From contig CP079955.1 in assembly GCA_019357535.2 (NCBI GenBank), forward strand, positions 186,001-250,000: a stretch of DNA of 64,000 nt. Reading direction: 5' to 3'. This document shows positions 28,090 through 39,029 of the stretch, in pieces. This DNA comes from Macrococcus sp. 19Msa1099 (GTDB lineage: Bacteria; Bacillota; Bacilli; Staphylococcales; Staphylococcaceae). Position 1 is the first letter of the stretch; each line of letters begins with the position of its first letter. Position numbers and translations under genes: made by a program. The notes beneath the pieces were generated by a model, which did no database searches, was not told where the DNA came from, and was given only the letters and a program-made list of their open reading frames with translations.

Positions 28090-28482
28090 TTGGCACAAGT
28101 TGAATATAAAGGCACAGGCCGTCGTAAACATTCAGTAGCACGTGTTCGTTTAATTCCTGGTGAAGGAAACATCACTATCAATGGACGTGACGTACGTGAC
28201 TACCTACCATTTGAATCATTAATTTTAGACTTAAACCAACCATTCGATATCACTGAAACTAAAGGTAACTACGATGTTTTAGTAAACGTTAATGGTGGAG
28301 GATTAACTGGTCAAGCACAAGCTATCCGTCATGGTATCTCACGTGCTTTATTAGAAGCAGATCCAGAATACCGTGGTTCATTAAAACGTGCGGGTATGTT
28401 AACACGTGACCCACGTATGAAAGAACGTAAAAAGCCAGGTCTTAAAGGCGCTCGTCGTTCACCACAGTTCTCAAAACGTTAG
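28090..28482 (+). CDS. rpsI: 30S ribosomal protein S9
   Basis: 130 residues from a TTG start ([20 protein letters not shown]). The C-terminal tail [13 protein letters not shown], whose last residues touch the P-site tRNA, is intact. The final codons are the attachment core of the inserted element, which therefore keeps the gene whole. RBS AGAGGAGG. Confidence 0.98.
28468..28481 (+). other. attL core inside rpsI
   Basis: TTCTCAAAACGTTA, covering the last codons of rpsI and most of the stop. Identical to 39016-39029; with one mismatch the match extends to 18 bases. Left attachment site of the element. Confidence 0.88.
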
Positions 28483-28597: not shown

Positions 28598-28634
28598 ATA
28601 TAAATTTTAATAAAGGAGTAGTGTAATTGAAAAT

Positions 28635-29222
28635 ATGAACAAGGTTAAAAATCCATTTCAGAGTATTAAAAATATATTTAAGAATGAAATATCTTGGAAA
28701 AAAGTAAGACTAAATGCACTATTTACTCTAATCTTTCCTTTAATAATTTTTACAATACCTATAACAATAGGTAATAATATCAGTATGAGAGAAAGTATAT
28801 GTGAAAAGCTAAGTAAAGGTATTTTGTTTACTACATCGTTCAGTATACTTGCAACTATATTTTCAACATACTTAGATAATAGTAGAAAGAAGATAGACGA
28901 AAATTCTTATACAATTAAAAATTTAGAAAAAGCTAATAATGGAATATTTATTTGTGTTGTTTTTGTAATTATTAGTGCTTCTTATTATGGACAGTCTCTT
29001 ACAGATAACTTAAACAAAATAGGTATTATAATAGAACTAATTCTTTATGTAGCCGTGTTATTATTATATGGATATTTAGATATACAAATTTCAAATGCTG
29101 AAGAAATAACATTTAATGATGCAGACAATTATAACATTAATGAAAATACAGAAATTAACGACCAATCAACTAAAATTGAGAATGAAAATATTCAAGACGA
29201 TATTAATGATAAAGATATTTAA
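28635..29222 (+). CDS. Four-helix membrane protein of the DGQHR cassette
   Basis: 195 residues of unknown family. Four hydrophobic helices are visible (about 28-48, 60-80, 97-114 and 128-148), then an acidic, Asn-rich cytoplasmic tail of about 45 residues. No catalytic motif. AAAGGAG (28612-28618) is 16 bases before ATG 28635. It sits better before a tiny TTG-AAA-ATA-TGA frame that overlaps the ATG, or before an in-frame ATT at 28626, so the start is uncertain. The DGQHR gene follows after about 20 bases, suggesting an operon. Confidence 0.65.
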   Translation: MNKVKNPFQSIKNIFKNEISWKKVRLNALFTLIFPLIIFTIPITIGNNISMRESICEKLSKGILFTTSFSILATIFSTYLDNSRKKIDENSYTIKNLEKANNGIFICVVFVIISASYYGQSLTDNLNKIGIIIELILYVAVLLLYGYLDIQISNAEEITFNDADNYNINENTEINDQSTKIENENIQDDINDKDI

Positions 29223-29244
29223 TATATAAGAAAGGATGAAAGTT

Positions 29245-30357
29245 TTGGAATTAAAGAATGTATTTCGTATAAACCAAACAACAAATGAAAATTATGTTTC
29301 TTATTATACAAAAATAAATGTAAAAGACTTAATTAAAATATCAGAAACACTCAGACTTTCTGACTCACGAAAAGGTATACAAAGACATTTAGATTTAGAT
29401 AGAGTAAATAATATAGCTTTGTATTGTGAAAGAGAAGATGCTATATTTCCGACACCAATAGTACTAACGCTAAATAAAGATTTTGTAACTAATGATTTAG
29501 AACGCGACAGTTTTATTGAACTAGATCTAAATATGATTGATTTGTTAGGTAAACCATTTTCTATAATTGATGGTCAACATAGAATAGAGGGTATTAAAAA
29601 ATATATTGAAAGAAATTATGAATCTAAAGATTTTGAATTACCTATAATTATATTTATGGATGCCGATTTAACTATGTCTGCCAATATTTTTGTAACGATT
29701 AATTCTAATCAAAAACCAGTAGATAAATCTATTATTTACGAGTTATTTGGAATAATGTATGAAAATAATGAGGTATACACTGTAGAGTCTTTTGCGAATA
29801 GAGTAGTAAAAATATTAAATGAAACTAAATCATCACCATTTTACAATTCAATAAGAATTTTAGGTAGGAAGACAAACTCTAAACAGTTCATCTCACAAGG
29901 AACAGTAGCAAAAAAAATTGTGGAGAGAGTCAGTAGTCCACAAAATATTATTATTGACAATAATAATATAAAAAAGGGTTTAAAAATAGAAGAAGATCAA
30001 AGAAGAATTTATAGACACTATTTTGCTAACAACCGTCCAGAAATTGTTGCTAAAATCATGATTAATTTCTTTAAAGCATTTTCGGAAGTATTTGATGAAT
30101 TTTGGAAAAATACATATATTACGAAGAAAGCAGTAGGATTTAGTGGTCTAATGAAATTACTTGATACTATATATAAAAATGAAAAAAATTTAAAATATGA
30201 AAATTTCTTGGAAATTTTTAGTGAAATGAAAGCAGAACATTATGAAGATATAGAGAAAACATTATTAATTAGTGGATCGAGTGAGAGTGTAGCAAATTCC
30301 ATTGGCAATAAACTTTCAGATATTTACTTAACTACAAGTAAAAGCACCAAAAATTAG
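29245..30357 (+). CDS. DGQHR-motif protein (DndB-related)
   Basis: About 370 residues. The defining motif IDGQHRIEG lies at about residues 108-116, followed by FVTINSNQKPVDKS, the second conserved block of the DGQHR/DndB family. DndB regulates DNA phosphorothioation; other DGQHR proteins occur in mobile elements and defence loci with unknown roles. No dndC, dndD or dndE is nearby. TTG 29245 is preferred because AAAGGATG is well spaced from it; an ATG at 29236 overlaps that binding site. It probably acts with the membrane protein encoded just upstream. Confidence 0.75.
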   Translation: MELKNVFRINQTTNENYVSYYTKINVKDLIKISETLRLSDSRKGIQRHLDLDRVNNIALYCEREDAIFPTPIVLTLNKDFVTNDLERDSFIELDLNMIDLLGKPFSIIDGQHRIEGIKKYIERNYESKDFELPIIIFMDADLTMSANIFVTINSNQKPVDKSIIYELFGIMYENNEVYTVESFANRVVKILNETKSSPFYNSIRILGRKTNSKQFISQGTVAKKIVERVSSPQNIIIDNNNIKKGLKIEEDQRRIYRHYFANNRPEIVAKIMINFFKAFSEVFDEFWKNTYITKKAVGFSGLMKLLDTIYKNEKNLKYENFLEIFSEMKAEHYEDIEKTLLISGSSESVANSIGNKLSDIYLTTSKSTKN

Positions 30358-30372
30358 TTTGGTGCTTCTTAC
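30342..30372. terminator. Terminator after the DGQHR gene
   Basis: AAGCACCA/TGGTGCTT stem (30342-30349 with 30360-30367) overlapping the stop codon, followed by a weak pyrimidine run. Confidence 0.6.
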
Positions 30373-30435: not shown

Positions 30436-30801
30436 TTATTGCTTAGTTAAATAAAAGTTATTTCGAACTAATTCAATTTGTGGCAAGGTCAGTGGTGTAA
30501 TATACAATATATTATTTTCTAATTCTCTAAAGTTAAAGAAAAAAATATACATTCCTTTGAACTCAATAACTTGTTCATTAATAATTAAAGATTTGTTCCA
30601 AGACCGATTGGGCTCTAGTTTTGTTGCAGGAACAATCAAAATATTATCTTGAAAGTAATAGTCAAATTTACTTAAAAAATATTCATCAATTAAAATTTTG
30701 AAGCTTTCTTGTGAAATTGACATCTGTTCAAATTTCATTTTATCAGCATTAATGCAATTGATAATCTTATTTATACCAAAAGCAAATATTTTAATATTCA
30801 T
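30436..30801 (-). CDS. Unknown protein downstream of the integrase
   Basis: About 121 residues, mixed hydrophobic and aromatic, no motif recognised, no signal peptide. ATG 30801 follows GTGAGG at good spacing; a GTG at 30813 is part of that site. It starts 28 bases after the integrase stop on the same strand and converges on the DGQHR gene. Hypothetical cargo or recombination-associated protein. Confidence 0.55.
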   Translation of the reverse strand: MNIKIFAFGINKIINCINADKMKFEQMSISQESFKILIDEYFLSKFDYYFQDNILIVPATKLEPNRSWNKSLIINEQVIEFKGMYIFFFNFRELENNILYITPLTLPQIELVRNNFYLTKQ

Positions 30802-30828
30802 ATATAACCTCACAAAAATTTGATATGA

Positions 30829-31296
30829 TTACTTTAGTGAATTGAGTAAATCTAAAGCATCAGCATCTTGCTGGTGTTTTTTTTCGGGCATTAGTTCCAA
30901 GTAATAATTCTGTGTGGTTAATATTGAACTATGACCTAAACGTTTTGAAATATAATCTAACCTTAAATTATCATTTGAAAATAAGAATGAGGCATGTGTA
31001 TCTCGTAATCCATGAAAGGTAGTTCGTTCAATTTCAAGTTCATCCAACATTTTAGCTAATATTTCAGATTGCTTGAAACCATCTCTTCCAAATATATAGC
31101 CATTACTTTTCTCTTTAACAGTTACTAAAAGATCATAGACTTCTTTATTGATACTAACATCACGTTTAGAGTGCTTTGTTTTTAATAGTATATCATCACT
31201 ATGAGGACTAATTGAACGTTTTATACGAATACCATATTCGTAAATATCCTCTTTTTTAATTCCTAGTAATTCGCCTCGACGTGCACCTGTTGTCAA
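30829..31296 (-). pseudogene. int: Tyrosine integrase, C-terminal fragment
   Basis: About 151 native residues carrying the rest of the catalytic domain: the ARRGEL arginine box, HGLRDTHASFLF (box II His-x-x-Arg), LGHSSILTT and the nucleophile tyrosine in TTQNYY. It is cut off from its N-terminus by the IS21-family insertion. Joining it to the fragment at 33468-34082 after removal of the IS and one copy of CCTGT gives a continuous frame (ALETGARRGELLG) of about 348 residues. As it stands it should not make active integrase. Confidence 0.88.
31286..31290. repeat. Target-site duplication, left copy (CCTGT)
   Basis: CCTGT immediately outside the left end of the IS, matched by 33493-33497. Five bases fits IS21-family insertion. 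Confidence 0.85.
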
Positions 31297-31351
31297 TAGC
31301 GGTTTAAAAATGTTGTTTTATGGCGGTTTGAAAATGTCGTTTTTTAGCGGT

Positions 31352-32119
31352 TTAAGTTTGTCGCATGCTTAAGGATTTTTCATTTTTATAATCTTTTAAT
31401 CGATATGATTCTCCAGTAATTTTAAATACTTTAGAATGGTGAATTAACCTATCTATTATAGCTGCTGATGCAATTGTATTACTAAATGACTCTCCCCAAT
31501 TAGAAAATGGAATGTTAGTTGTAATTATTGTTGATTTCATTTCATATCTTAGTGACATTAACTGATAGAATAAATCGGCTTGTTCTTTAGTGATGGGAGT
31601 ATAACCAATTTCATCAATGATAAGTAATTCTATTCTGCTTAATTGTCTTAATGTTTTATTGATGATTCCTTTGGAATCTGAGTCAGTTAGTAAGTCTATT
31701 AAATCTTTGAAGGTGTAGAATTTGGTCTTTATATTTTGTTTACAAGCTTCTATTCCTAATGAGATTGCCAAGTGTGTTTTACCAACACCACTGTTACCCA
31801 GGAAACAAATATTAATACTATCTTCTAAGAAATGCATAGATTTTAAAGTAAGTATTTCTTGTTGATTTATACTTGGTTGAAACATAAAATCAAAATCATG
31901 TAAATATTTTATTTTAGGGAAACGTGCTGAATTCACAGCACGTTTAAATTTTAATTCTGATTGATATTCTATCTCTTTTTCGGTTAAATCAATTAATATT
32001 TCAGTTAAAGATTTCTCATTTTTAGAAAGTAATTCAATGTAATTTGGATAGTAAGCTTTGAATTTTTTAAGTTTTAATATTTCAAAATTATTGAGCAATT
32101 TTTGATGATTCGTATTCAT
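31352..32119 (-). CDS. istB: IS21-family transposition helper ATPase IstB
   Basis: 255 residues, AAA+ ATPase related to DnaC. Walker A FLGNSGVGKTHLA and Walker B LLIIDEIGYT are visible. IstB remodels target DNA and activates IstA. ATG follows CGAGGAGG; it lies 15 bases after istA. Apparently intact. Confidence 0.93.
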   Translation of the reverse strand: MNTNHQKLLNNFEILKLKKFKAYYPNYIELLSKNEKSLTEILIDLTEKEIEYQSELKFKRAVNSARFPKIKYLHDFDFMFQPSINQQEILTLKSMHFLEDSINICFLGNSGVGKTHLAISLGIEACKQNIKTKFYTFKDLIDLLTDSDSKGIINKTLRQLSRIELLIIDEIGYTPITKEQADLFYQLMSLRYEMKSTIITTNIPFSNWGESFSNTIASAAIIDRLIHHSKVFKITGESYRLKDYKNEKSLSMRQT

Positions 32120-32134
32120 CTTAAGTCCTCCTCG

Positions 32135-33370
32135 CTATATTTCGTCATACAGTAATAATGAATTTTCTATATATGTAAGTATCTCTTCATCATCCTTGTG
32201 TTTAAATACATCTGATTTTAATATCTCACTCATATCTTCAACGAAATAATTAAATTTTCTTTCAGATAGATTATGTCGTCTTATTAACTCACCATCAAAA
32301 TAAATAAGCAATTCATCTGTTGAGTCATTGAATATCACCTGTACTTCTTCACCAATGTATTTAGTAGGAACAGAGTATTTACCTTTTCTAAAGTTAACCA
32401 TCGATTCTTTAGAAACGATTCTAATACATTCATCTTCGATGTAAGTATTTAATAAACTGTCATTAAAAGAATTTAAATGCTCTTTTTCTTCGTAATTGAA
32501 AACATCTATAGGTCGTTGATCTGTTGCCTGCGAAATTTCTTCATAATTTAATTCCTGGCATAGATTATTAACCAGCCCAATAAGTTCGACAGCATCATAA
32601 AATTCATAATCATAAGGTCTTAAACGTTGTTCAACAAATTTAGCCAATGATTCGACGGATCCTTTGGTTTGAGGACGATAAGGCCTACAAGCAATAGGTT
32701 CAAAGTTGGCATCCTTACTAAATTGATAAAACAAATTATTGAAGACGACTTTTTTATATTGTGTTCTCGGTCTATCAACTACGGTTCTCATATTATCGAA
32801 CCATATTTCTCTTGGAACACCTTCGGTGTATTCAAAAGCATCTTTCAGACATTCAAATAACGTATCTTGTTTTTTATCCCAAGTTAATGTGATATACTTC
32901 ATTTTTGAATAGTGTAGAACGTAAAGAAAGATATTGAATTGATAAGTTCTGCCAAACTTATCATGCATTATCATATCTTCTTTCCAGTCTACTTGAGCAG
33001 CTATACCGGGATTTGTTTCTACGCGTATAGTTGCTTTTTTAGTCTCGTTTAGTTTTTTGTTTTTACAGTATTCTCGCAAAATTGTATAGCGACCTTTATA
33101 TCCTTTCTTCTCAATGTATTTGAATATTGCCATGGCAGTACATCCTAATTCAATTTTTTCATCAATTATTTCTTTAAACGGATCTAGTTTTGATGTTTTC
33201 TTAGTTTGTTTTCTTTTCTTCAGTCCTTCTAATTCATTTTCTTTACCGGCTTCATAATATTTTTTAACTGTTCTTGGATCACAATTATACTGTCGACCCA
33301 GCTCGGCATAATTTGGTTTAATACCTTTCATAATATAAAATAGCACTCCTTCATAAATGTCATGTCTCAA
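32135..33370 (-). CDS. istA: IS21-family transposase IstA
   Basis: 411 residues. The N-terminal helix-turn-helix (about residues 20-40, ELGRQYNCDPRTVKKYYE) binds the terminal repeats. The DDE catalytic core is seen as QVDWKE, WFDNMRT and KGSVESLAKF. Start ATG 33370 has GGAGGTTA 15 bases upstream. Apparently intact, so the IS could still be active. Confidence 0.92.
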   Translation of the reverse strand: MRHDIYEGVLFYIMKGIKPNYAELGRQYNCDPRTVKKYYEAGKENELEGLKKRKQTKKTSKLDPFKEIIDEKIELGCTAMAIFKYIEKKGYKGRYTILREYCKNKKLNETKKATIRVETNPGIAAQVDWKEDMIMHDKFGRTYQFNIFLYVLHYSKMKYITLTWDKKQDTLFECLKDAFEYTEGVPREIWFDNMRTVVDRPRTQYKKVVFNNLFYQFSKDANFEPIACRPYRPQTKGSVESLAKFVEQRLRPYDYEFYDAVELIGLVNNLCQELNYEEISQATDQRPIDVFNYEEKEHLNSFNDSLLNTYIEDECIRIVSKESMVNFRKGKYSVPTKYIGEEVQVIFNDSTDELLIYFDGELIRRHNLSERKFNYFVEDMSEILKSDVFKHKDDEEILTYIENSLLLYDEI

Positions 33371-33467
33371 TCAAATAACCTCCAATCGAAGATTGAGTTA
33401 AGACATGATTATATAATTTTGAAAAGAAAAAATGTAGGAAAAACAGCATTTTCATTCCGCCATTTTC

Positions 33468-34082
33468 CTACATTTTATAACCGCCATTTACACCTGTTTC
33501 CAGTGCTAGAAGTACTAAAATATGAAAATCATTTTTCGGATTGTTAAGTAAGTAAGATCTTAGCTTCTTGAAATCTGTTATAGATAATGCTTTATTTCTT
33601 TTATCTAATTCTTTTCCTCTAGTTTTAACAAGTCCGGCAAAATCAGAGGATAGCAATCCACGACCATAGGCATAACGTAAGGAGGTTCTAATTTTTAATA
33701 ATACTTCTGTAGTAGTTTTTCTGGAATGCGTTTTACCATATTCATCTATCTTCATTTGTACAACAATATCATTTAAATCGCTTAGCTTCGTATCTCCAAA
33801 CAGTTGCTTAACGATAGGTATTGTCCTTGTATAGTTGATAAATGTGGCAGGTCTAACATCATTTTTTTTAACTAAATGAACCCAGTTTTCAAAAAATATA
33901 GAGAATGATTCATTTCTACTAGCAAGATCTACACCGTTTCCCTTAGCAATTTCATTCTGCATTGCCCAACGTTTAGCTTCTGTAAGTGTTTTAAATGTCT
34001 TTGAAATACGGTTATTAACACCATTCTTATAATTAGATATTTGTACTCTGTATGATTTGCCACGTTTTGTTATTGTCGCCAT
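33468..34082 (-). pseudogene. int: Tyrosine integrase, N-terminal fragment
   Basis: 197 native residues, then seven residues read out of the IS end before a stop. It contains the arm-binding start (MATITKRGKSYRVQIS) and the SAM-like core-binding domain (about 60-140), and stops at LALETG, directly in front of the catalytic arginine box. The frame resumes at 31290. The element's integrase of Tn916/ICE type should insert the island at rpsI but is now split. Confidence 0.88.
33493..33497. repeat. Target-site duplication, right copy (CCTGT)
   Basis: Second copy of CCTGT adjoining the right end of the IS. Confidence 0.85.
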
Positions 34083-35697: not shown

Positions 35698-37026
35698 TTA
35701 ATTGTTTTGTACCTCTGGAATATATTTCTTCAATTCCTCTATAAAATCATATTGCGTTGTATCAATATATGGGCTTTCATAATATTGTGCTTGTTCTTTG
35801 CCACTGCCATGTAAATATAGGAGTCCAGCACCTTTTACCTCAATAGGGATGGAAACATCTGGAGTAGCAGAACCAAACATCATACGCAATCCTTCTGAAC
35901 TGTTAAAACCAAGTGAAACTCTTAGCGAAAAATTATCTCGTAATTCTGTACTTAGATTATTAGCATTGATTTGTTGTCCAGCTATAAGAATGAAACATCC
36001 AGCTTGGCGACCTAATAAAATGATTTGCTTGATTCCGTCCATAACTTCGCTGATAAGCTCTTTAGATTTTTTATCAGTACCATAAGCTTGAAATGCTCCG
36101 ATTTCGTCAAATAATATCCATACTGGTTTAAATCCATGGGTTTCAAAATTAGCACCATATATAAAGTTTTCATTCATGTAGTCATATCTACTTTTCATTT
36201 CATCTACTGCTAGTCTTATAACACGAGCAATATTATTTGGAGTGGTTGCTACATATTTTTCGCCGAGATAGTTTGATAAAGATCCAAGGTCACTGTTCTT
36301 ACAATCACATAAGAAAATAGTAGATTTTTGCTTTAAGAACTCGATTAACAAGAAACTCATAAACATGCTCTTACCACTACCAGTGCCACCCGAAATTAGT
36401 ATGTGAGGTGATTTAGTGGGATTATATGTCACACCATAACCAAGATTGATATCATTAGAGTTATTGTATGAAGTATCTTGAGTAGGTATGTTTAATCTTT
36501 GTGGCTTATTAATTCTAAAGTGATATTCAGTTGCATTATGACGTATTATTTTTTCGTATATTGGTAAATCTAATAAACCTTGTAATTGAATGTCTAAATT
36601 TAGTATTTTGTTATCAAAATAATTTCCTGACATTAAAGCGTAAATAACTATTTCATCATTTGTAATAGAATAAGAAAATCTTGATGAAGTAATAATCCCA
36701 TTAGCATCCTCATTAAATAACTTATTGTTTATAATGAACTCTAATAATTCATGATGCATAAAATACTTGTCATTATACTTATCTTTGATAGAACTAATAA
36801 ATTTAAATTGTTTTACAAATAAAATAATTCCTATAATCCATATTGCAAAAGTAAATATAGCTTTATCTACCATAAATGAAAAAATAAATATGCCAAGAAT
36901 GAGATATAGAATTATTAACCTAAGGTATTTGATAAATTTAGGTAGAGATAAAAATATGAGATCATTTTCATACATACTGATTATTGGCAATTCATCTTTT
37001 TTAAAAAAATAAATTAATTTATTCAT
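35698..37026 (-). CDS. FtsK/SpoIIIE (TcpA)-like DNA translocase
   Basis: 442 residues. Two N-terminal membrane helices (about 34-51 and 55-72), then a motor domain with Walker A ISGGTGSGKS (211-220) and Walker B PVWILFDEIG (301-310). The length and layout match coupling-protein-like ATPases (Tn916 Orf21/TcpA) of Gram-positive ICEs and IMEs, which bring the Rep/relaxase-DNA complex to a transfer channel. No lone-channel or VirB-like genes are present. Confidence 0.85.
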   Translation of the reverse strand: MNKLIYFFKKDELPIISMYENDLIFLSLPKFIKYLRLIILYLILGIFIFSFMVDKAIFTFAIWIIGIILFVKQFKFISSIKDKYNDKYFMHHELLEFIINNKLFNEDANGIITSSRFSYSITNDEIVIYALMSGNYFDNKILNLDIQLQGLLDLPIYEKIIRHNATEYHFRINKPQRLNIPTQDTSYNNSNDINLGYGVTYNPTKSPHILISGGTGSGKSMFMSFLLIEFLKQKSTIFLCDCKNSDLGSLSNYLGEKYVATTPNNIARVIRLAVDEMKSRYDYMNENFIYGANFETHGFKPVWILFDEIGAFQAYGTDKKSKELISEVMDGIKQIILLGRQAGCFILIAGQQINANNLSTELRDNFSLRVSLGFNSSEGLRMMFGSATPDVSIPIEVKGAGLLYLHGSGKEQAQYYESPYIDTTQYDFIEELKKYIPEVQNN

Positions 37027-37298: not shown

Positions 37299-38015
37299 CT
37301 ATACTTCAAACTCTACTAATAGAGCTTTATGATCACTTATGTTATTCGATAATGGATCTGATTTTTCATATTTTAAATTTTTTGTAACAAAAATATGATC
37401 TAACTTTTGATTATTCCAAGTAGGAATATCATTTGTTGCTGAATCAAGATGATTCTCTAAAATATCTAAATTGTGAGAGAGAACTGTTTCATTCCCAATT
37501 TTAGATTCGTTGAAATCACCTGCTAAAATTAAATAGTCATACTTACGGAAATTTTTCCCTAGCCTTAGTGTTAGATCCCACATATTAATTTTGTCTTGTC
37601 TATTATCTTGATTTTGGCTTTGATAGAGAGGAAAGTGTAAGGAAAAGATACACATTTTTTTACCATTTATCTCAAAAATTGCACCAGTTTGTCTATTAAC
37701 GAAAGAATGTACGTAATATGCTGGCATCATTTTTTTATAATTCACTTTTTCTTTTAAATAAAGTATGCGTGTATTAATAGGTTTGATACCATCTTTTAAG
37801 GGTTCTACAACTGCATATCCATATTGATTTAATTTATTTAACAATTCCAAACCATCAATATCACCAGTTATAGATTTTTCACCAAATTCTTGTAAGGTAA
37901 CAAAAGTTGGATGATTATTTATGATGAATTCTGCCACATCTTCTGTAGTACGTTTAATATTTGATTCAGGGTTGTAAAAGTTTAAGTTTAAACTCATTAA
38001 GCTATATTTGGTCAT
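37299..38015 (-). CDS. Endonuclease/exonuclease/phosphatase-fold protein
   Basis: 238 residues with the full EEP active-site set: LQEF (Glu43), SLHFPL, GDFNES (Asp167, Asn169), KLDHIF (Asp206, His207) and SDHKALLVEFE (Asp228, His229). The family includes Mg-dependent nucleases and phosphodiesterases. No signal peptide, so probably cytoplasmic. RBS AAAGGAG. An unusual cargo for such an element; it might act in DNA processing or in conflict with other elements. Confidence 0.8.
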   Translation of the reverse strand: MTKYSLMSLNLNFYNPESNIKRTTEDVAEFIINNHPTFVTLQEFGEKSITGDIDGLELLNKLNQYGYAVVEPLKDGIKPINTRILYLKEKVNYKKMMPAYYVHSFVNRQTGAIFEINGKKMCIFSLHFPLYQSQNQDNRQDKINMWDLTLRLGKNFRKYDYLILAGDFNESKIGNETVLSHNLDILENHLDSATNDIPTWNNQKLDHIFVTKNLKYEKSDPLSNNISDHKALLVEFEV

Positions 38016-38057
38016 ATCCTTTTCTCCTTTGTTATAATGGGGAATTCCTATCTATAT

Positions 38058-38231
38058 TTATACTCTGTTTGCAAAATAGCAGTAGTACGAACCACGCACT
38101 GGAACTCTGTGTTTATAAATTACTTTGTCCAAGGTTTCTTTAGGTGTTAATCCATTAGGAAGTAGCTTGTTGTAGAAATCATTTCTATCACTAACATATG
38201 GTTTTAAAGATTGAATAATTGTGTTTATCAT
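38058..38231 (-). CDS. Small unknown protein
   Basis: 57 residues; no motif recognised. ATG 38231 follows a strong AAGGAGGTG. The 21-bp palindrome at 38262-38282 lies just upstream, so it may head a regulated unit including the EEP-fold gene 42 bases downstream. Confidence 0.5.
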   Translation of the reverse strand: MINTIIQSLKPYVSDRNDFYNKLLPNGLTPKETLDKVIYKHRVPVRGSYYCYFANRV

Positions 38232-38261
38232 AGTAATCACCTCCTTTTATATGTTGTTTTT

Positions 38262-38282
38262 TTGTCGTTCTTAATGCGACAA
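38262..38282. promoter_or_regulatory. Palindromic operator-like site 1
   Basis: TTGTCG-N9-CGACAA, the same half-sites and spacing as at 38820-38840. Lies 31 bases upstream of the 57-residue gene start. Candidate operator of an element-encoded or host regulator. Confidence 0.55.
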
Positions 38283-38305
38283 TCTATTTAAAAAATATTG
38301 AGAGT

Positions 38306-38803
38306 TTAACTCTCAATATGAAAAATATATTTATAATAAGCAAAAACAACAATGCTTATTACATATGATAATCTTACAACTCTAATCATGGATTCTTTCA
38401 TAAAGTCTTTTTGATATTGATTTAATCCAGAAATTACATCTTTTTCTAAATATAATTTAGGTGTGAGTGATCCAACTTCAATATTTTTATCAATTCTAAA
38501 AGCATTCATTTCATTTTCTATTTTTATCCATTCATCTAATGAAAAGTTTTTAGAGTATTTAAATGCTCCTTCTATGACACTGGAAGACGAAACCTTTAAA
38601 ATAGTAGTAATTGAAATAGCATCAATAGTTTTTGGATCAAATCCTTTTAGTTCATTATTTATAAAAGATTTTATGCTTTTTTCAATTAATGGCATTTCGC
38701 TTTCGGATATGGATTTTTGTAATGATTCTTGAAGTTGGGTTTGAATAGATTCTATAAAATATTTTGCTTCATAAGATAATCTAATATTTAAATAATCTCT
38801 CAT
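38306..38803 (-). CDS. Tail-anchored unknown protein
   Basis: 165 residues, largely helical and charged, with one hydrophobic C-terminal helix (about 144-161) suggesting tail anchoring. First gene of the minus-strand block. RBS AGGAAGG. Preceded by a good promoter (38852-38880) overlapped downstream by a 21-bp palindrome. No family recognised. Confidence 0.6.
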   Translation of the reverse strand: MRDYLNIRLSYEAKYFIESIQTQLQESLQKSISESEMPLIEKSIKSFINNELKGFDPKTIDAISITTILKVSSSSVIEGAFKYSKNFSLDEWIKIENEMNAFRIDKNIEVGSLTPKLYLEKDVISGLNQYQKDFMKESMIRVVRLSYVISIVVFAYYKYIFHIES

Positions 38804-39015: not shown

Positions 39016-39029
39016 TTCTCAAAACGTTA
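39016..39029 (+). other. attR core
   Basis: TTCTCAAAACGTTA, identical to the end of rpsI; the next bases (ATAT against GTAT) continue the match with one change. Confidence 0.88.

What the first reader, a model, noticed from the sequence alone, without database searches (positions are those of the whole stretch)
28626..30357. Two-gene cassette: four-helix membrane protein plus DGQHR (DndB-like) protein
It sits at the attL edge, opposite in direction to the other island genes, with its own terminator, which is the usual cargo position. DGQHR proteins are known from DNA phosphorothioation (DndB) and defence islands, yet no dnd partners are present. A membrane partner with an acidic tail suggests a stand-alone system, perhaps anti-phage or exclusion. 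This is the best candidate for an undescribed system here.
Basis: partly seen in the sequence, partly recalled or inferred. Interest (0 to 1): 0.7.

Follow-up and report, generated by a model that had tools for sequence, protein, structure and literature searches.

The report
Membrane–DGQHR pair linked to DNA modification
A small mobile element in a Macrococcus-type bacterium carries two adjacent genes, a four-helix membrane protein and a DndB-like (DGQHR) nucleotide-binding protein; relatives of this pair occur side by side across many bacterial phyla and in prophages, usually next to DNA-methylating or other DNA-modifying genes, so it is a good candidate for an undescribed defence or exclusion system, although no function has been tested.

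Summary
The two genes are real and intact. ORF1 (28635-29222) is a 195-aa protein with four predicted membrane helices. ORF2 (29236-30357) is a 373-aa DGQHR protein that passes the TIGR03187 and PF14072 cut-offs but fails the DndB, DpdB and DGQHR_dnd_1 cut-offs. They lie at the attL edge of a 10.55-kb element in the 3' end of rpsI, whose ends are supported by empty sites in other Macrococcoides genomes. In a sister element, the same slot carries a restriction-modification pair.

In 80 of 80 nearest genomic relatives, from many phyla, a 2-5-helix membrane gene directly precedes the DGQHR gene, usually overlapping it. At least 26 viral contigs show the same.

The module is usually not stand-alone. 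A D12-family adenine methyltransferase lies within 5 kb in 47/80 genomic loci and 26/28 viral contigs. Others sit beside dnd, DpnII, HsdR or other methylase genes. The window copy is in the minority without such a partner.

Best reading: a membrane-tethered ParB-like NTPase that checks or intercepts incoming DNA, in organisation like Kiwa but unrelated by sequence. I found no published description of the pair; function is inferred only from context.

The parts
28090..28482 (+). rpsI (30S ribosomal protein S9), integration target; its 3' end contains attL
   Evidence: ORF and translation; att core at 28468-28481
28468..28481 (.). attL core TTCTCAAAACGTTA
   Evidence: Direct repeat with 39016-39029; empty sites in L238 and L239
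28635..29222 (+). ORF1: 195-aa membrane protein with four predicted helices, cytoplasmic N terminus and acidic C-terminal tail (inferred topology)
   Evidence: helices; homologous to upstream partners of other DGQHR genes; no Pfam, NCBIfam, PADLOC or PHROG family above cut-off
29236..30357 (+). ORF2: 373-aa DGQHR-domain protein (ParB/Srx-like NTPase fold); Q49-R50, D112-GQHR-116 and F152xxxN156 motifs intact
   Evidence: AlphaFold pLDDT 90; Foldseek best hits are ParB N-terminal domains
30342..30367 (+). Intrinsic terminator-like hairpin closing the cassette
30436..30813 (-). 125-aa hypothetical backbone gene, present in sister elements L228 and L230
30829..31296 (-). C-terminal part of the tyrosine integrase, split by an insertion sequence
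   Evidence: PF00589 2.5e-10; intact 348-aa homologue in L228 and L230
31352..33370 (-). IstB- and IstA-type ORFs of an IS21-like insertion that splits the integrase
   Evidence: ORF positions and translations; family assignment by reading of the sequence
33468..34082 (-). N-terminal part of the integrase
   Evidence: PF14659
34317..35147 (-). Rolling-circle-type replication initiator (Rep) of the element
   Evidence: PF23343 2.9e-21; PHROG 3419
35698..37026 (-). FtsK/TraB-like DNA translocase of the element
   Evidence: PF01580 1e-9
39016..39029 (.). attR core TTCTCAAAACGTTA

Best explanation
The cassette is one copy of a widespread two-protein module: an integral membrane protein (called 4TM here) plus a DGQHR protein. 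It most likely works as an invader-control (anti-phage or exclusion) device held at the cell membrane. Shown here: the genes occur as a tightly linked, usually overlapping unit; the DGQHR protein keeps its superfamily motifs and a ParB-type nucleotide-binding fold; the unit occurs in viral (mostly prophage-like) contigs, plasmids and genomic islands, and mostly sits next to DNA-modification genes. Inferred: the 4TM protein anchors the DGQHR protein through its cytoplasmic C-terminal tail. The DGQHR protein binds NTP and DNA and responds to the state of the DNA (unmodified or entering DNA against modified self DNA). Activation at the entry site then blocks the incoming DNA by binding or nicking it. 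The window copy has no adjacent modification enzyme, so it would need either a cue other than modification or a modification enzyme elsewhere in the genome.
For: Pairing: in the 80 best genomic relatives a gene with 2-5 predicted membrane helices directly precedes the DGQHR gene in all 80, with overlap in most (62 of 82 pairs including plasmid and window copies overlap, 31 by exactly 4 bases). The membrane proteins are essentially one family: 76 of 84 in one phmmer cluster that includes the window protein. Distances of the two proteins correlate across loci (Mantel r=0.57, P=5e-4). Mobility: 26 of 28 pair-bearing viral contigs carry a D12-type methyltransferase, and CI repressor, integrase and tail genes are found among the neighbours. 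Modification link: D12 methyltransferase in 47/80 genomic loci, DpnII in 11/80, dnd-type genes in about 11/80, HsdR next to the M. goetzii pair, dptH and dndE around pairs in Aliivibrio and E. coli. Slot: a sister rpsI element has an N6_Mtase plus specificity-subunit pair at the same edge, and a type III R-M system is reported at rpsI in M. caseolyticus JCSC5402 (PMC5341023). Fold and motifs. Related ParB-fold proteins: a DndB-like protein binds ATP and GTP (PMC12704722), and the DGQQR arginine of DndI is needed for ATPase and phage resistance (PMC11662687).
Against: No experiment shows defence, membrane localisation or interaction. No nuclease domain was found, so the effector step is unknown. 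Sixteen of 80 loci, like the window, have none of the modification genes looked for within 5 kb (one of the sixteen, M. goetzii, does adjoin hsdR), and this genome has no D12 methyltransferase at all, so modification sensing cannot explain every copy in the simplest way. Linkage to methyltransferases could instead mean a regulatory or helper role. Foldseek support for ParB is weak in absolute terms (E 0.011, TM 0.27-0.38). The 80 loci are the nearest clade to the query, found with patterns derived from 4TM-linked proteins, so 80/80 does not describe all DGQHR proteins.
Confidence: 0.45

Rival explanations
1. Abortive-infection effector: the DGQHR protein is a nucleotide/DNA sensor that normally holds the 4TM protein silent, and on infection the 4TM protein opens or disrupts the membrane and stops the cell.
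For: The 4TM protein diverges fast (mean identity 15% against 38% for DGQHR) and its commonest conserved polar position is a G-[E/Q/S/D]-[L/F] at the start of helix 2, compatible with a lipid-facing effector. Distant DGQHR clades swap partners (2-helix proteins with a soluble N-terminal domain in L002, L004, L011; a RelA/SpoT-type protein in L005), as effectors are often swapped.
Against: No clear resemblance to known pore effectors in PADLOC (only scattered E 0.001-0.07 hits) or in solved structures. Methyltransferase linkage is not typical of abortive-infection pairs (own knowledge).
Confidence: 0.25
2. Helper or regulator of DNA modification: the DGQHR protein supports or restrains the adjacent methyltransferase or phosphorothioation enzymes, as DpdB and DndB are proposed to do, and the 4TM protein places this at the membrane.
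For: Relatives DpdB and DndB act in modification systems (PMC12839542, PMC10853773). A D12 methyltransferase lies within 5 kb in 47/80 genomic and 26/28 viral loci.
Against: D12 methyltransferases work without such partners (own knowledge: Dam). The same pair occurs with chemically unrelated modifications (methylation, phosphorothioation, type I R-M) and in about 16/80 loci with none found. The window genome has no D12 enzyme.
Confidence: 0.15
3. Element upkeep: a ParB-like protein tethered to the membrane helps the element to be partitioned, replicated or to exclude a second copy, without any role against phage.
For: The ParB-like fold and location on an integrative element, plasmids and viral contigs. 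A ParB/Srx protein acts in conflict between conjugative plasmids (Maindola et al. 2014, cited in PMC12839542).
Against: Many copies lie inside dnd or R-M clusters. Sister rpsI elements with the same Rep and FtsK backbone lack the pair (L228, L230), so the backbone does not need it.
Confidence: 0.12

Closest known systems
Kiwa (KwaA + KwaB)
   Same: Two genes; a membrane protein with a DNA-binding partner that intercepts phage DNA at the membrane (described in PMC12904381).
   Different: No sequence match: the window proteins do not match KwaA or KwaB, and 1 of 80 relatives of the membrane protein hits KwaA at E 0.012, i.e. noise. The partner here is a DGQHR/ParB-fold protein.
DndB / DGQHR_dnd_1 (TIGR03233, TIGR04172) of phosphorothioation systems
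   Same: Same DGQHR superfamily; some members of this very pair lie in dnd clusters.
   Different: Window protein far below both curated cut-offs (25.9 of 328 and 141.5 of 450 bits); no dnd genes in the window; I found no membrane partner in the account of the Dnd machinery that I read (PMC10853773).
DpdB of the 7-deazaguanine Dpd system
   Same: Clear family match (PADLOC DpdB 3e-27; NF041060 7.8e-25).
   Different: 87.5 bits against a cut-off of 300; no dpd genes recognised in the window.
GmrSD / DndI / SspE (DUF262 ParB-like NTPase plus HNH nuclease)
   Same: Shared QR, DGQ[H/Q]R and FxxxN motifs in a ParB/Srx-type NTPase (PMC4619093, PMC11662687); used in modification-linked defence.
   Different: No HNH nuclease domain here; a separate membrane protein instead.
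rpsI-integrated islands of Macrococcus (McRI type)
   Same: Same integration site and a tyrosine integrase; R-M cargo reported in one (PMC5341023).
   Different: This element has a Rep-FtsK backbone and a 4TM-DGQHR cargo, no mecD.

Membership tests
DGQHR domain (TIGR03187) / DndB superfamily (PF14072) | Score above curated cut-off; DGQHR pentapeptide, QR pair, FxxxN | tested here: met
   156.9 vs 58.85 and 71.5 vs 29.1 bits; motifs at 49-50, 112-116, 152-156, invariant or nearly so in 60 relatives
ParB/Srx fold | Structural match to ParB-type nucleotide-binding domain | tested here: met
   Top Foldseek hits are ParB N-domains, probability 0.95-0.97 but E 0.011 and low TM; PHROG ParB-like partition protein 3e-6. 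Met, but weakly.
Dnd (DndB) | Equivalog score and dndCDE neighbours | tested here: not met
   25.9 of 328 bits; no dnd genes among window ORFs
DGQHR_dnd_1 (TIGR04172) | Score above 450 bits and phosphorothioation context | tested here: not met
   141.5 bits; no such context in the window
Dpd (DpdB) | Equivalog score and dpdA/dpdC neighbours | tested here: not met
   87.5 of 300 bits; none among the element genes scanned
Kiwa | KwaA- and KwaB-family proteins | tested here: not met
   no KwaA structure named among the fold hits
GmrSD / DndI / SspE | HNH nuclease domain attached to the ParB-like domain | tested here: not met
   No HNH family matched
Anti-phage defence system | Reduces phage plating or phage DNA entry | not testable with these tools
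   Needs experiment
Conserved 4TM-DGQHR module (proposed here) | Homologous membrane gene directly upstream of the DGQHR gene | tested here: met
   80/80 nearest loci; one homologous cluster of 76/84 including the window

The most novel reading that the evidence does not exclude
An undescribed, widespread defence or exclusion system made of a DNA adenine methyltransferase (often), a membrane protein and a ParB-like NTPase. The 'restriction' half is not a soluble nuclease but a membrane-held switch that reads the modification state of DNA as it enters. The window copy is a slimmed form without its own methyltransferase.
Probability: 0.25. Interest if true: 0.88.

Novelty: new variant of a known kind. 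Interest (0 to 1): 0.68.

Why it matters
The same two genes recur side by side in Bacillota, Pseudomonadota, Bacteroidota, Chloroflexota, Planctomycetota and other phyla and in viral (mostly prophage-like) contigs. In the annotated records looked at, the DGQHR half is named only by domain and the membrane half as 'hypothetical protein'. If the pair is immune in function, it would be a common and overlooked system that couples DNA-modification context to the membrane, and it would give a role to a large group of DGQHR proteins found outside dnd and dpd clusters. Small cassettes (about 1.7 kb, or about 2.6 kb with the methyltransferase) make it directly testable.

Tried and rejected
1) Canonical DndB or DpdB: rejected by curated cut-offs and absence of partner genes. 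2) KwaA homology of the membrane protein: rejected. 3) Na+/H+ exchanger, MFS and similar Pfam hits of the membrane protein: scattered and weak, taken as hydrophobic background. 4) Solved-structure homologues of the DGQHR profile by sequence: none; of the membrane model by fold: none significant. 5) Close relatives in viral contigs with the single window sequences: none; the profile built from five DGQHR proteins worked. 6) Profile search for the membrane family in 398 Bacillota genomes gave mostly unspecific membrane-protein matches, so I could not count how often that family occurs alone; at least one clear homologue is alone (L191). 7) A conserved acidic tail: not general. 8) A first alignment with eight divergent DGQHR proteins was too diverse for a collection scan. 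9) Papers: 'DGQHR' occurs in six held papers; I read passages of one of these and the abstract starts of the rest, and none mentions this pair there; further searches. The Kiwa paper itself is not held, so Kiwa is cited from a review.

Full report
What is there. ORF1 (28635-29222, 195 aa) and ORF2 (29236-30357, 373 aa) are intact, on the + strand, 13 bases apart, and closed by a hairpin at 30342-30367. ORF1 has four membrane helices by hydropathy and in an AlphaFold model of moderate confidence. ORF2 is a DGQHR-domain protein: TIGR03187 156.9 bits against a cut-off of 58.85, PF14072 71.5 against 29.1. It fails the equivalog cut-offs of DndB (25.9 of 328), DpdB (87.5 of 300) and DGQHR_dnd_1 (141.5 of 450). 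Its model is confident (pLDDT 90) and its best solved-structure matches are ParB N-terminal domains (probability up to 0.97, but E 0.011 and low TM). The QR, DGQHR and FxxxN motifs shared with GmrS-type NTPases (PMC4619093) are present and nearly invariant in relatives.

Where it sits. The cassette lies at the attL edge of an element in the 3' end of rpsI. The 14-bp repeat TTCTCAAAACGTTA occurs at 28468-28481 and 39016-39029. In two other Macrococcoides genomes, one of them M. goetzii CCM 4927, the rpsI end runs directly into the sequence that follows attR here. The element is therefore about 10.55 kb long. It carries a tyrosine integrase split by an IS21-like insertion, an excisionase-like HTH protein, a rolling-circle Rep and an FtsK-like translocase. 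GC is 28% for the element and 23-26% for the cassette, against 36-38% for the flanking chromosome. Two sister elements at rpsI in other Staphylococcaceae share this backbone. One (L230) has an N6-methylase plus a specificity subunit in the same slot; the other (L228) has no such pair. rpsI islands of Macrococcus are known, and one carries a type III R-M system (PMC5341023). So 'cargo position' holds, and defence genes are one kind of cargo there.

Is the pair conserved? A scan of one genome for each of 84,980 species with a profile of five DGQHR proteins gave 263 relatives, and the 80 best were fetched. In all 80 a gene with 2-5 predicted membrane helices (mostly 3-4, median length 183 aa) ends within about 90 bases of the DGQHR start on the same strand, usually overlapping it. 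The membrane proteins form essentially one homologous cluster (76 of 84, window included), and their distances track those of the DGQHR proteins (Mantel r 0.57, P 5e-4). Same-genus M. goetzii has a 35%-identical DGQHR with a 202-aa four-helix partner beside hsdR. Caveat: these are the nearest clade to the query, found with patterns taken from 4TM-linked proteins. More distant DGQHR clades have other partners: a 2-helix protein with a soluble N-terminal domain, a RelA/SpoT-type protein, or a ~320-aa downstream protein, or no obvious partner (L012-L020). In an even sample of 398 Bacillota genomes only two hold this clade. Conversely, the membrane family also exists without DGQHR (L191, 25% identity over 146 aa, pairwise E 6e-19).

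What surrounds the relatives. Pfam on flanking genes of the 80 genomic loci found D12 adenine methyltransferases (26 proteins), DpnII (7), other DNA methylases and DndE. With profiles built from these neighbours, a D12 methyltransferase lies within 5 kb in 47/80 genomic loci and 26/28 pair-bearing viral contigs, DpnII in 11/80 and dnd-type genes in about 11/80; 16/80 had none of these nor a methylase motif, though one of the sixteen (M. goetzii, L037) adjoins hsdR. In viral contigs the other neighbours include CI repressors, integrases and tail genes, so many of these are prophages. In Aliivibrio and E. coli the pair lies between dptH and the convergent dndE. In Salmonella Cerro 87, the phosphorothioate-sensing factor DndI is also encoded next to dndBCDE and co-transcribed with dndFGH (PMC11662687). 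The window copy has no modification gene in its element, and the genome has no D12 methyltransferase, though N6_Mtase matches, most of them weak, exist elsewhere.

How it most likely works. Shown: a linked, mostly overlapping membrane/DGQHR unit with an intact nucleotide-binding-type motif set, mobile, enriched next to DNA modification. Established for relatives: a DndB-like protein binds ATP and GTP (PMC12704722), and the arginine of DGQQR in DndI is needed for ATPase and phage resistance (PMC11662687). Inferred: the 4TM protein tethers the DGQHR protein to the membrane, where it tests or captures incoming DNA. The organisation recalls Kiwa, whose membrane KwaA and DNA-binding KwaB act together at the injection site (PMC12904381), but neither protein is a Kiwa protein by sequence. 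Rivals are an abortive membrane effector, a helper of modification, and an element-upkeep function. The conservation of the pair is near certain; an immune or exclusion role of some kind I put at about 0.65, and the specific membrane-interception mechanism at 0.45.

Novelty. The DGQHR domain is known and the dnd-linked form has an NCBI name; the membrane partner is annotated as hypothetical protein (or, in E. coli, apparently as 'accessory gene regulator B family'). The held papers that mention DGQHR gave no description of the pair in what I read, and PADLOC (2023) has no model that recognises it as a pair. Subscription papers and preprints could not be searched. I therefore call it a new variant of a known kind: a two-gene membrane plus DNA-binding module built on a DGQHR protein.

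Noticed in passing
window 30829-34082: The element's tyrosine integrase is split by an IS21-like IstA/IstB insertion, so this copy is probably unable to excise on its own.
   Followed up: partly
L230 10181-13356 (genome G062): Sister rpsI element with the same backbone carries an N6_Mtase + specificity-subunit R-M pair in exactly the slot occupied by the 4TM-DGQHR pair in the window.
   Followed up: yes
L003, L008, L144-L158 (Pf phage PfAC19, Providencia plasmids, viral contigs): A more distant, shorter DGQHR clade (~326-349 aa) is paired instead with a downstream ~290-330-aa protein of unknown family, often overlapping by 4 bases: a second DGQHR two-gene module carried by a filamentous phage and other elements.
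   Followed up: partly
L005 2731-4918 (Lactococcus plasmid): DGQHR gene preceded by a RelA/SpoT-domain protein, near two cytosine methyltransferases: another partner swap.
   Followed up: no
L002, L004, L011: DGQHR genes of a sister clade preceded by a ~260-275-aa protein with a soluble N-terminal domain and one or two C-terminal membrane helices.
   Followed up: no
C-termini of the 4TM proteins in L030-L032, L039, L044, L046, L047, L052, L059, L060, L073: Some membrane partners end in a G-x(1-2)-polar-[ILVF]-COOH tail such as VDGIKL (11 of 82 against 0.65 in shuffled tails), nearly all in loci without a D12 methyltransferase; possible docking peptide for the DGQHR protein. The pattern was chosen after looking at the tails.
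   Followed up: partly
L231 3344-5023; E. coli genomes such as NC_011748.1: In E. coli dnd/dpt clusters (109 of 5426 genomes cover most of the query) the DGQHR gene appears split into two ORFs and the 4TM gene is apparently labelled 'accessory gene regulator B family', probably a misannotation.
   Followed up: no
L191 1267-1953; L190 1483-3025: Homologues or look-alikes of the 4TM protein without DGQHR: one in what looks like a housekeeping cluster (between thioesterase-like and HAD-like genes), one beside a DNA methylase with a different ~300-aa partner.
   Followed up: partly
window 37299-38803: Endonuclease/exonuclease/phosphatase-like protein (238 aa) and a 165-aa protein near attR; similar ORFs in the sister element L230, possibly a second cargo or backbone.
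   Followed up: no
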